Shown piece by piece: positions 47,200-49,492 of a DNA stretch of 56,825 nucleotides (position 1 is the first letter of the stretch; every line of letters starts with the position of its first letter). The notes under the pieces are model-generated. The model was not told the origin of the DNA and did not search any database. It saw only the letters and a list, made by a program, of their open reading frames with translations. Both the position numbers and the translations under genes were made by a program. Source of the DNA: Alphaproteobacteria bacterium (GTDB lineage: Bacteria > Pseudomonadota > Alphaproteobacteria > Ferrovibrionales > Ferrovibrionaceae); the NCBI GenBank assembly GCA_947473805.1, contig CANJGB010000022.1, forward strand, positions 1-56,825, given 5' to 3'.

Positions 47200-48636
47200 T
47201 CAGACCGGGCGGGCGTGCTTTTCTATATGGGCACGGATCGCGCCAAAGTCATTGGGCAGGACGGTAAAGCGTTCCTTGCGGTCCAGCAGGTCGGCAAGGC
47301 GCGCGGGCAGCGCCGGGCGCTGGCCGGTGGCCTTCTCGACCGCGTCGGGAAACTTGGCCGGATGGGCAGTGGCGAGCGTCACCACCGGCACCTCGGCCGG
47401 GAGCACGCCGCTGCGCCGCATCATGCGCGCCACATGCAGGCCGACGGCGCTGTGCGGATCGACCTGCATGCCGCTCTCGGCATAGACGGCGCGCATAACC
47501 GCCAGTGTCTCGCCCTCGTCGGCGCGGCCGGCGCCGAACAGCAGTTTGGCCGCCTTCAGCCGGTCGGCCTTCACGGCGAAGGCCTTGCGGGTGCCGAGGT
47601 CGTCCATGAATTGCGAGATGACGGCGCCGTCGCGCTCCTCAAGTTCAAACAGCAGGCGTTCGAAATTCGACGAGATCTGGATGTCCATGCTGGGGCTGAT
47701 GGTCGGCTCGACGCCGGCCATGCGGTATTCGCCGCCCTTGAAGAAGCGGGTGAGGATGTCGTTGCGGTTGGTGGCGATGACCAGCTTCTCGACCGGCAGG
47801 CCCATGCGGTGGGCCGCATAGCCGGCATAGATGTCACCGAAATTGCCGGTCGGCACCACGAAGGCCAGGCGGCGCTGGCGCATGCCGCGCAGCGTCTTGG
47901 TCTGGGTCGCGCCGAGCGCGATGGCCGCCGTCACGTAATAGACGATCTGCGCCAGCACGCGGGCCCAGTTGATGGAGTTCACCGCCGAGAGGTTGAGCTT
48001 GGCGCGCGCCTCGACGTCGTTGAACAGCGACTTCACCAGCGCCTGGCAATCGTCGAACGTGCCCTCGACCGCGAGGCAGTGGACATTGGCATCGGCCACC
48101 GTGGTCATCTGCCGGCGCTGCACGTCTGACACGCGCCCATGCGGATAGAGGATGAACACATCCATCGCGTCGCGACCGCGGCAGCCCTCGATGGCGGCGG
48201 AGCCGGTGTCGCCCGATGTCGCGCCGACAATGGTGATTCGCCGGTTCTCGCGCTTCAGCACGTCGTCGAACAGCCGGCCAAGCAGTTGCAGCGCCACGTC
48301 CTTGAACGCGAGGGTCGGGCCGTGGAACAGCTCCATCAGCCAGTCGTTCGGACCGGTCTGGCGCAGCGGCGCGACGGCAGGGTGGCCGAACTTGCCGTAG
48401 ACGTCGGTGACCATGTGCTCGAACGCCTTGGGCGACACGCTCTCGCCCACGAAGGGGCGCATCACGGCGAGCGCGACCTCGGCATAGGACTTGCCTTCAA
48501 GGGCGGCGAAATCGTTGGCGGTGAGCTGCGGCCAGGTCTCGGGCACATAAAGGCCGCCGTCGCTGGCAAGGCCGGCGAGCAGGACGCCGCTGAACGGCAG
48601 GGTGGGCGCGCGGCCGCGGGTGGAGACGTAGTTCAC
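47200..48636 (-). CDS. thrC: Threonine synthase
   Basis: A 478-residue PLP enzyme that converts phosphohomoserine to threonine. The Schiff-base Lys is in ELFHGPTLAFKDVALQLLG near residue 113. The phosphate loop is ATSGDTGSAA, and FVVPTGNFGDIYAGY lies in the middle. The start is GTG at 48636, giving MNYVSTRGRAPTLPFSGVLLAGLASDGGLYVPE, the standard N-terminus. The leader holds a GGCGGC/GCCGCC hairpin (about 48657-48677) and, further up, the 10-bp repeat array. Confidence 0.95.
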   Translation of the reverse strand: MNYVSTRGRAPTLPFSGVLLAGLASDGGLYVPETWPQLTANDFAALEGKSYAEVALAVMRPFVGESVSPKAFEHMVTDVYGKFGHPAVAPLRQTGPNDWLMELFHGPTLAFKDVALQLLGRLFDDVLKRENRRITIVGATSGDTGSAAIEGCRGRDAMDVFILYPHGRVSDVQRRQMTTVADANVHCLAVEGTFDDCQALVKSLFNDVEARAKLNLSAVNSINWARVLAQIVYYVTAAIALGATQTKTLRGMRQRRLAFVVPTGNFGDIYAGYAAHRMGLPVEKLVIATNRNDILTRFFKGGEYRMAGVEPTISPSMDIQISSNFERLLFELEERDGAVISQFMDDLGTRKAFAVKADRLKAAKLLFGAGRADEGETLAVMRAVYAESGMQVDPHSAVGLHVARMMRRSGVLPAEVPVVTLATAHPAKFPDAVEKATGQRPALPARLADLLDRKERFTVLPNDFGAIRAHIEKHARPV

Positions 48637-48961
48637 GGGTGACTGATCCTTAAAGGGCGGCGGGAGATATAGCCGCCGGGGGCGGCAGCGTCGATAGCGG
48701 GCCGTCCGGCTTATTTAGGCTTATTCGCGCTTGTTCTGGCTTGTTTGGGCTTATTTCGGCTTGTTTGAGCTTATTTAGGCTTATCTGAAGCAATTGAATT
48801 CAGTTAAGTCACTGAAATGATTGACTGGTCCAGCCCGGCACCCGGTTTTCCCCGTGCGGCACAGGAGGACCAAAAAGAAAATGGTGGGAATTTTGTCTTT
48901 ATCAAGAGCGCCTGCGCTTGCAAGGGAATGCTAGAGTGAGCGCAACACAAAGGACACGGCC
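48637..48961. other. 325-bp divergent intergenic region between thrC and ppa
   Basis: No gene is evident. Read from thrC outward it holds a GC hairpin at about 48657-48677, the eight-unit 10-bp repeat at 48709-48788 and an AT-rich patch with TTGAATTCAG at about 48793. The ppa leader follows, with AGGAGG near 48865 before a 17-codon frame (ATGGTGGGA onward) and an extended -10-like TGCTAGAGT near 48930. The 17-codon frame is too short to support as a gene. Confidence 0.5.
48709..48788. repeat. Eight imperfect tandem copies of a 10-bp unit
   Basis: Eight consecutive 10-mers begin GCTT and fit GCTTRTTYNG loosely: examples are GCTTATTTAG (first and seventh copies), GCTTGTTTGG and GCTTATTTCG. The last copies degrade to GCTTATCTGA. 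There is no gap between units and the register never slips. The array is AT-rich in a GC-rich chromosome and contains stops in both orientations, so it is not coding. It lies 73-152 bp before the thrC start and 174-253 bp before the ppa start. The 10-bp period is close to the helical turn. Confidence 0.85.
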
Positions 48962-49492
48962 ATGGACCTGAGCAAGATACCGGTGGGGCGGAACCCGCCC
49001 GACGACGTGAACGCGGTGATCGAGATTCCGCAGGGCGGCCTGCCGGTGAAGTACGAGGTCGACAAGAAGTCGGGCGCGCTGTTCGTCGACCGTTTCCTGC
49101 ACACGGCGATGTTCTATCCGGCCAATTACGGGTTCATCCCCCACACCCTGTCGGAAGACGGCGACCCGTGCGACGTGCTGGTCATCAGCCAGATTCCGGT
49201 AGTGCCGGGCGCGGTCATCCGCTGCCGCCCCATTGGCGCGCTGCTGATGCAGGACGAAGCCGGACCTGACGAGAAGATCATTGCGGTGCCGGTGGACCAC
49301 CTGCACCCGTTCTATCGCGGCGTCACGTCATATACCGACCTGCCGGAAATCCTGCGCGCGCAGATCACGCACTTCTTCGAGCACTACAAGGATCTCGAAA
49401 AAGGGAAATGGGTGACGGTGGCGAAATGGATCGATGCCGCCGAGGCGCGCGAGCTGATCCTGCAGGGCATGGCCCGCGCGAAGGCGGCCTAG
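48962..49492 (+). CDS. ppa: Inorganic pyrophosphatase
   Basis: A 176-residue family-I pyrophosphatase that hydrolyses PPi to phosphate and so drives biosynthetic reactions. The metal site signature is [12 protein letters not shown] near residue 64. Further conserved parts are [19 protein letters not shown] and KIIAVPVDH, and [19 protein letters not shown] near the C-terminus. The length and order are normal. Its stop codon overlaps the stop of the convergent binding-protein gene in a shared CTAG. The promoter lies in the region with the 10-bp repeats. Confidence 0.95.

What the first reader, a model, noticed from the sequence alone, without database searches (positions are those of the whole stretch)
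48709..48788. Eight in-register copies of a 10-bp AT-rich repeat between thrC and ppa
The array keeps an exact 10-bp period for 80 bp with GCTT at the start of every unit, while the remaining positions vary. It is non-coding, AT-rich in a GC-rich genome, and lies in a divergent promoter region. The period, near one helical turn, places the A/T tracts on one face, which would favour bending or cooperative binding of a protein along one side. The variation between units suggests selection on GCTT and on spacing rather than a recent slippage product. I know of no named element with this form.
Basis: partly seen in the sequence, partly recalled or inferred. Interest (0 to 1): 0.7.

Follow-up and report, generated by a model that had tools for sequence, protein, structure and literature searches.

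The report
Scattered helix-phased DNA arrays, HTH gene-linked
The 80-base repeat is one of at least ten closely similar copies scattered through this bacterium's genome, and such arrays are tied to a family of unannotated DNA-binding-type protein genes that often carry the same kind of array in their own tail end, which suggests an unrecognised protein-and-site system that wraps or coats DNA.

Summary
In detail: eight GCTT-led 10-bp units fill window 48709-48788. It is not a local thrC/ppa element. The same genome holds at least ten such arrays (A-type) spanning eight units in the same unit order, and at least nine of a second type (B). Several genomes of the same family, including Ferrovibrio, carry dispersed arrays with other unit sequences. 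Unit spacing is 10 or 11 bp, hardly ever 9 or 12.

The arrays go with an unannotated family of helix-turn-helix (HTH) proteins. The window's genome has four such genes: three carry an A-, B- or D-type array at the 3' end, the fourth its own 21-bp repeat. A dispersed D-type array was also present, in a region fetched earlier as a weak A-pattern hit. In 45 HTH genes the 3' regions are enriched for repeat lags near multiples of one helical turn, lag 10 most of all.

Best reading: cooperative, possibly wrapped, binding sites for the HTH proteins, comparable in action to RemA, BldC or phage small terminase. Binding is inferred, not shown. Orthologous HTH proteins with nearly the same recognition helix can carry different array types, so direct sequence reading is doubtful. 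RNA-level and selfish-repeat explanations remain open.

The parts
48709..48788 (+). A-type array, eight 10-bp units GCTTRTTNNN; on the - strand AATAAGCCNN-type units
47200..48636 (-). thrC, threonine synthase; start codon GTG 72 bp from the array
48962..49492 (+). ppa, inorganic pyrophosphatase; ATG 173 bp from the array
48799..48816 (.). inverted repeat TTCAGT-N6-ACTGAA between array and ppa; possible separate operator (sequence only)
   Evidence: read by eye; the hairpin also appears in the fold

Best explanation
The array is a dispersed copy of a helically phased direct-repeat element that belongs with a family of HTH proteins resembling phage small terminases. SHOWN: at least ten A-type arrays of about 80 bp (eight units) in the genome; type-matched arrays at the 3' end of HTH genes for three array types (A, B, D) in this genome, and the same arrangement in other genera; enrichment of lags near 10, 20-22 and 30-32 bp; core more conserved than spacer in two orthologous arrays; array type exchanged at a fixed site. 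INFERRED: HTH protomers (one per helical turn, or an oligomeric ring) occupy the units cooperatively on one face of the DNA, largely by shape (A/T-rich stretches alternating with G/C), and wrap or coat about 80 bp. At intergenic sites such as thrC/ppa this complex would modulate nearby transcription or fold the chromosome; at the HTH gene it would give autoregulation.
For: Own-genome copies. The HTH family was found through two array-bearing Ferrovibrio genes and then by homology; a profile finds it in 11 of 18 family genomes and 5 others of 387 (at most 16 candidates per genome were scored). In the window's genome: L056 carries a B-type array over its stop codon, L051 an A-type array, L489 a D-type array, L439 a 21-bp repeat. 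A model of 21 HTH sequences that included none from this genome finds L056 (2.8e-16), L051 (7.4e-9) and L439 (7.8e-8), and L489 (8e-11). A D-type solo array was present in L066, fetched as a weak A-pattern hit before the D gene was known. Lag scan: 29 of 45 HTH 3' regions reach the 99% level of 150 control windows at lag 10, 19 at lag 20, 14 at lag 32, 9 at lag 30, 8 at lags 21 and 22. Strictly above that level at lag 10 or 21: 25 of 32 family genes (counted from the rows). Spacing and core/spacer. The predicted HTH core (residues 71-150, block means of pLDDT 91 or more) best resembles phage protein phBC6A51 (Z 7.5, 3.0 A, 72 residues); Sf6 small terminase follows with Z 5.0. Analogues: RemA (PMC8481266), BldC (PMC5859096), SPP1 TerS (PMC4856287), passages seen. 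The array RNA has no unusual fold (z 0.11) and no Rfam match.
Against: No binding data. Recognition helices do not track array type: orthologous HTH 'a' carries 10-bp arrays in G003/G012 and 21-bp arrays in G013/G014 although the helix is nearly the same, and AATAAG-type arrays go with several different helices (read by eye). G013 has solo GTTCG arrays while none of its three HTH genes carries that type; G016 (72% complete) has arrays and no HTH hit. In the lag scan, lags 19, 25, 28 and 29 also reach 7-9 of 45, the control set is small, four of the 45 genes (L429, L395, L056, L051) were found in loci fetched for their arrays or promoter sites, and 7 of 32 family genes fail (one is cut by its contig end). 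Four Azospirillum homologues show no lag-10 excess (0.37-0.43 against a control level of 0.483; one is slightly over at lag 20). Structural Z values below 8 can be a common arrangement (note); Foldseek's best E-value was 0.98. The A-type HTH gene is frameshifted in this assembly. No dispersed C-type copy was seen in the 47 sources of this genome scanned, which are a small, array-biased part of it.
Confidence: 0.42

Rival explanations
1. Non-functional or selfish dispersed repeat: arrays arise by slippage in HTH-gene 3' ends and spread to intergenic DNA without being bound; shared phasing is a by-product of common descent.
For: A-type copies share unit order, so they are copies; the neighbouring genes that were scanned have no common theme; simple 10-bp satellites are common elsewhere; unit number varies in Ferrovibrio, e.g. 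about 13, 13 and 9 at rplM by eye.
Against: Spacing almost limited to 10/11; 10-bp, 21-bp and 11-bp types with unrelated sequences recur at HTH genes; core held, spacer changed in two orthologous arrays; type exchange at a fixed site.
Confidence: 0.25
2. RNA-level element: the arrays work when transcribed. In Ferrovibrio a promoter with a GTTCN7GTTC (LexA-type) site often points into the array, giving a repeat RNA that binds a protein or small RNA, or acts as a leader or 3' end.
For: 16 of 19 G003 arrays have GAACN7GAAC with at most one mismatch within 160 bp on the array's right, either strand, against 50 of 1672 control windows (one strand, all loci); several HTH gene promoters carry the same type of site (by eye).
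Against: No such site at the window array, and only 3 of 19 G000 arrays have one on the right side; the array RNA is not unusually structured; a 10/11-bp alternation has no obvious meaning in single-stranded RNA.
Confidence: 0.15
3. Ends or remnants of a mobile element whose transposition or packaging uses the HTH protein (small-terminase or transposase-like), the solo arrays being deletion derivatives.
For: The HTH domain resembles phage phBC6A51 and, more weakly, Sf6 TerS; weak Pfam TnsD and HTH_23 matches; solo B copies align beyond the array with the B-type HTH gene region; one Azospirillum homologue lies about 1.5 kb from an IS5-like transposase.
Against: No transposase or terminase was recognised by eye beside the family HTH genes (not systematically annotated); HTH 'a' lies beside a Clp ATPase gene in G003 and beside the same gene by eye in G012, G013 and G014; some arrays are at orthologous sites in two to four species; two phage searches gave no match.
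Confidence: 0.1
4. One reading: an operator array specific for the thrC and/or ppa promoters.
For: Position in a divergent promoter region; AT-rich and phased.
Against: At least nine further copies, beside unrelated genes where scanned; not present upstream of ppa in 14 of 14 family relatives.
Confidence: 0.05

Closest known systems
RemA and its eps/tap sites (Bacillus; PMC8481266, abstract and passages seen)
   Same: AT-rich direct repeats, 7-bp protected stretches at 3-bp intervals (10-bp period), modest sequence conservation, octameric ring thought to wrap DNA
   Different: RemA has a LytTR-related DNA-binding domain, not an HTH; the passages seen describe no array inside its own gene; here arrays are scattered and of several types
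BldC (Streptomyces; PMC5859096, part of abstract and passages seen)
   Same: small HTH protein coating a variable number of direct repeats head to tail, AT-rich groove shape read indirectly
   Different: 9 bp per protomer, MerR-like winged HTH; sites are promoter operators, not matched arrays in its own 3' end
Phage small terminase at pac, e.g. SPP1 G1P (PMC4856287, passages seen)
   Same: DNA-binding domains around an oligomer, nucleosome-like wrapping, recognition of DNA structure more than sequence; phBC6A51 and Sf6 TerS are among the best structural neighbours
   Different: no phage context recognised; many chromosomal sites; weak structural scores
StbA/stbDRs of plasmid R388 (PMC3098194, passages seen)
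   Same: protein bound to tandem 9-bp repeats spaced by 2 nt (11-bp period) beside its own gene, with further copies in other promoters
   Different: plasmid stability and transfer; repeats lie around the promoter, not the gene's 3' end
Dispersed bacterial repeats (REP/BIME recalled; BOX and RUP seen only in a search listing)
   Same: small intergenic elements in many copies, sometimes tied to a cognate gene (recalled)
   Different: REP-type elements form hairpins (recalled); here direct repeats with helical phase and no unusual fold

Membership tests
RemA-type ring-wrapped sites | AT-rich direct repeats with 10-bp period | tested here: met
RemA-type ring-wrapped sites | RemA (LytTR-related) protein binds them | not tested
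   no search for RemA was made; the linked protein is modelled with an HTH
Phage small terminase / pac | DNA-binding domain of TerS fold | tested here: inconclusive
   phBC6A51 Z 7.5, Sf6 TerS Z 5.0; Pfam Sf6_terminase in 2 of 25 members, best E 0.011
Phage small terminase / pac | terminase large subunit and phage genes adjacent | tested here: inconclusive
   none recognised in the flanks read by eye, no systematic annotation of all flanks; no match in 50,697 phage records for two queries
BldC family | MerR-like winged HTH | tested here: inconclusive
   the model shows helices only around the HTH; a family not listed is not excluded
StbA/stbDR-type partition | direct repeats of about 10-11 bp next to the protein's own gene | tested here: met
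   (repeats at the 3' end, not in the promoter)
StbA/stbDR-type partition | StbA homology and a plasmid stability role | not testable with these tools
   StbA is not among the 18 Pfam families returned, which does not exclude it; function needs experiments
REP/BIME-like repeats | inverted repeats forming a stem-loop | tested here: not met
   direct repeats; the window array region folds no better than shuffles, z 0.11
Simple satellite (slippage) | near-identical units with variable copy number | tested here: not met
   A-type: unit sequences are position-specific; 6 of 10 arrays have eight consecutive units by a strict rule, the other four have a degenerate unit inside. In Ferrovibrio unit number does vary

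The most novel reading that the evidence does not exclude
A previously undescribed chromosomal nucleoprotein system: paralogous HTH proteins, each encoded by a gene that carries its own helically phased binding array in its coding 3' end, with matching arrays spread over the genome as sites where DNA is wrapped; arrays of unrelated sequence can replace each other because shape and phase, not sequence, are read.
Probability: 0.3. Interest if true: 0.9.

Novelty: new variant of a known kind. Interest (0 to 1): 0.72.

Why it matters
If the HTH proteins bind these arrays, a bacterium has several parallel protein/array pairs in which the site is carried in the gene itself and scattered through the genome. 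That would give a simple, testable case of DNA recognition by helical phase and shape, of co-spreading of a regulator and its sites, and possibly a domesticated phage packaging protein used to organise a chromosome. It also gives function candidates to a family of hypothetical proteins found in several Alphaproteobacteria.

Tried and rejected
RNA element: no Rfam match, fold z 0.11. SOS regulon: GAACN7GAAC sites flank most G003 arrays, but the ten left-hand genes scanned are metabolic, transport, ribosomal and tRNA-modification genes and one WYL regulator, so a plain SOS operon reading was dropped. Contig segregation of A and B types: no shared contig, but simulation gives this by chance in 10%. 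Of the 80 loci held and printed, most are simple 10-bp satellites, so that scan does not show the family's range. The viral scan (30 stretches) gave mostly the same. Structures: Foldseek gave no match at E 0.001 or better. A sequence profile search of the PDB gave 8vd6_A 'CAP repeat' (E 6.6e-11 for the whole chain, no stretch passing alone) and 2x48_A (E 5e-4); I did not use these. Azospirillum homologues (7 plasmids, 4 read) did not extend the array link. Curvature was not computed. RemA presence was not tested. The defence library (PADLOC) was not searched.

Mistakes: one search used an 11-bp unit by error and was repeated correctly; the pattern was too narrow; one G011 stretch (L373) missed its array; the C-type pattern did not fit the C array and was replaced; one search read four loci on the wrong strand, corrected. 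One of the seven spacer differences lies just beyond the last unit. An eight-unit count for all ten A arrays, first made by eye, holds for six of ten under a strict rule. One search was this report with four fields in the wrong format.

Novelty rests on searches of an open-licence PMC library. Only their listings were viewed, except for five papers opened (passages; 103 outline and abstract; two of these five came from searches). None of what was seen describes such arrays; other literature was not searched.

Full report
The array. Window 48709-48788 holds eight in-register 10-bp units that all begin GCTT; positions 3-8 of the unit are mostly A/T and positions 1-2 and 9-10 mostly G/C. It is far from chance. 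It lies between thrC (-) and ppa (+), both confirmed by Pfam.

Not unique. I fetched the nine others with flanks and aligned all ten. Six of the ten have eight consecutive units by a strict rule. In the other four (L051, L052, L053, L054) one inner unit is degenerate, but the units around it stay in register, so that by eye they also span eight; L052 has a one-base insertion and L054 perhaps a degenerate ninth unit. The units are position-specific: for example the two units nearest thrC in the window are nearly the same in all copies, while similarity stops at the array's edge. The copies are therefore related by descent, not a random satellite. A second type (B, GGTCCTTATT-like units, about five by eye) has at least nine copies with shared flanks, in most including a T-run on the distal side. 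In the six A copies whose neighbours were scanned (eight proteins) the genes have no common theme.

Relatives. In 385 genomes of the class an exact four-unit CTTR pattern hits 17 genomes; it gives 43 hits in the window's genome and 40 in G007 of the same family, few elsewhere. G003 of the same family has none but 66 on the reversed control, which turned out to be GTTCG-type arrays. One family genome (G016) has a contig of the same length, 908,791 bases, as the record titled Ferrovibrio sp. Gw_Bodden_bin_214, in which the same array was found, so genus g4 is taken as Ferrovibrio. The window's genus is another one in the same family. Among 18 family genomes the TTRTT pattern hits 6 and the RTTC pattern 8. 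Ferrovibrio arrays run from a few to well over ten units and can join two unit types (by eye).

Phasing and constraint. In 55 related loci (one, L373, without its array), spacings of exact core words that adjoin a 10- or 11-bp spacing are 10 (359), 11 (17), 9 (1), 14-16 (6), with 12 and 13 absent; 28 values of 3, 4 and 6 come from overlapping core words. Between G007 and G016 two orthologous arrays differ at 0 of 110 core positions, 7 of 100 spacer positions (one of these just past the last unit) and 27 of 920 flank positions (Fisher p 0.005 for core against spacer). This is the only orthologous pair of species counted.

Fixed sites, changing arrays. Downstream of ppa, G003 and G014 have a GTTCG/GAACG 10-bp array, and G013 has a 21-bp GAGTCAGGTC array at the same place, in G003 and G013 followed by the same AGAACGTATATRGAAC tail. 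By a three-unit rule these three are the only ones of 15 family loci with an array within 350 bp downstream (G006 shows only 64 bp, and G011 has a run of N there); upstream, only the window's genome has one. Upstream of rplM, G003, G014 and G012 share the array and its flanking site, and G011 has one there too (L375). Of the other loci that could be read there, G016, G007, G017, G010, G001 and G000 have none within 480 bp; G015 shows only 15 bp, and the remaining loci were not read.

The HTH genes. In G003 one array lies inside an ORF for an HTH-like protein and another follows a similar ORF. A protein search found the family in more Ferrovibrio genomes, often with an array in the 3' coding part (10-residue or 7-residue repeats) or just after the stop. 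A profile then found 11 of 18 family genomes and 5 others among 387 searched, with at most 16 candidates scored per genome. That profile contains three sequences of the window's genome, but an earlier model without them already found these three. The window's genome has four genes: L056 (B-type array across its stop), L051 (A-type array, gene frameshifted), L439 (C-type, 21-bp repeat) and L489 (D-type, GAATCTAAGC). The D type was afterwards recognised as a solo array in L066, a region fetched as a weak hit of the A pattern. In this genome the dispersed types A, B and D thus each have an HTH gene with the same array. No dispersed C-type array was seen in the 47 sources of this genome that I hold, which are a small part of it.

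A broader test: in the 3' regions of 45 HTH genes (260 bp on each side of the stop; L051 shifted because of its frameshift), the best 60-base self-match reaches the 99% control level at lag 10 in 29, lag 20 in 19, lag 32 in 14, lags 19 and 30 in 9 each, lags 21, 22 and 29 in 8 each, lags 25, 28 and 31 in 7 each, lag 11 in 6, and at the remaining lags from 6 to 33 in 0-4 (150 control windows from the same loci, so the 99% level is rough). Four of the 45 (L429, L395, L056, L051) lay in loci fetched for their arrays or promoter sites; the others came by homology.

The protein. The AlphaFold model of L056 is confident for residues 71-150: an HTH followed by a long helix. The best structural neighbour is phage protein phBC6A51 (Z 7.5, 3.0 A over 72 residues, 11% identity), then an R2 retrotransposon protein (Z 5.1) and Sf6 small terminase (Z 5.0), which are tied. 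These scores are below the level at which the tool itself calls a match safe. Pfam gives HTH_23 for 11 of 25 members (best E 2.5e-5; 15.5 bits against a cutoff of 24.6 in the one case shown). NCBIfam gives nothing usable for eight members. Seven Azospirillum plasmids have distant homologues; the four that I read are annotated as hypothetical proteins and show no lag-10 array.

Mechanism. RemA binds AT-rich direct repeats of 7 bp at 3-bp intervals and forms an octameric ring (PMC8481266). BldC coats direct repeats of variable number and reads groove shape (PMC5859096). SPP1 TerS is thought to wrap pac DNA and to read structure more than sequence (PMC4856287). The present arrays fit such a scheme: one HTH per turn, eight turns in the A type. 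Against a simple sequence-reading scheme, orthologous HTH proteins with nearly the same recognition helix carry arrays of different type, so either shape is read or another factor is involved. Nothing here shows binding.

Transcription. In G003, 16 of 19 arrays have a GAACN7GAAC site (at most one mismatch, either strand) within 160 bp on one side, against 50 of 1672 control windows on one strand; in the window's genome 3 of 19 arrays do. Several overlap promoter-like hexamers pointing into the array, and several HTH gene promoters have similar sites (read by eye). That GTTCN7GTTC is the LexA site of Alphaproteobacteria is recalled, not tested. The window array has no such site.

Verdict. The array is a member of a dispersed, helically phased, HTH-linked array family that I have not found described in the papers seen.

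Noticed in passing
L051 (G000:C14 about 82.8-83.5 kb): The HTH gene that carries the A-type array has a frameshift before the repeat; it may be broken or an assembly error.
   Followed up: partly
L056-L064: Most B-type copies have a T-run (AAATTTTTTTC) just beyond an AAATCAANGGCTTG motif; the reverse of that motif also occurs near some A-type and Ferrovibrio arrays.
   Followed up: no
L350-L368: GAACN7GAAC sites (LexA-type, recalled) next to most G003 arrays, with mostly metabolic and housekeeping genes around them.
   Followed up: partly
L356, L359, L367, L374, L379, L382: GCATACN4GTATGC-like palindromes near the array or promoter-like site in several Ferrovibrio elements (by eye).
   Followed up: no
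L374, L376, L378: A further array type in G011 with TATCGGCG-like units at about 10-11 bp, following GTTCG arrays.
   Followed up: no
L166, L197, L223: One Verrucomicrobiales MAG (Umea3_bin-0111) has three dispersed, degenerate CTTGTT 10-bp arrays, possibly an independent case.
   Followed up: no
window 48799-48816: Inverted repeat TTCAGT-N6-ACTGAA between the array and ppa.
   Followed up: no
L491, L493, L494, L497, L498: HTH homologues in other alphaproteobacterial families have GTTTCAC-like repeats near the 3' end rather than long arrays (by eye).
   Followed up: no
L507-L510: Azospirillum homologues have two GTTCCAC-like units 10 bp apart just after the gene (by eye).
   Followed up: no
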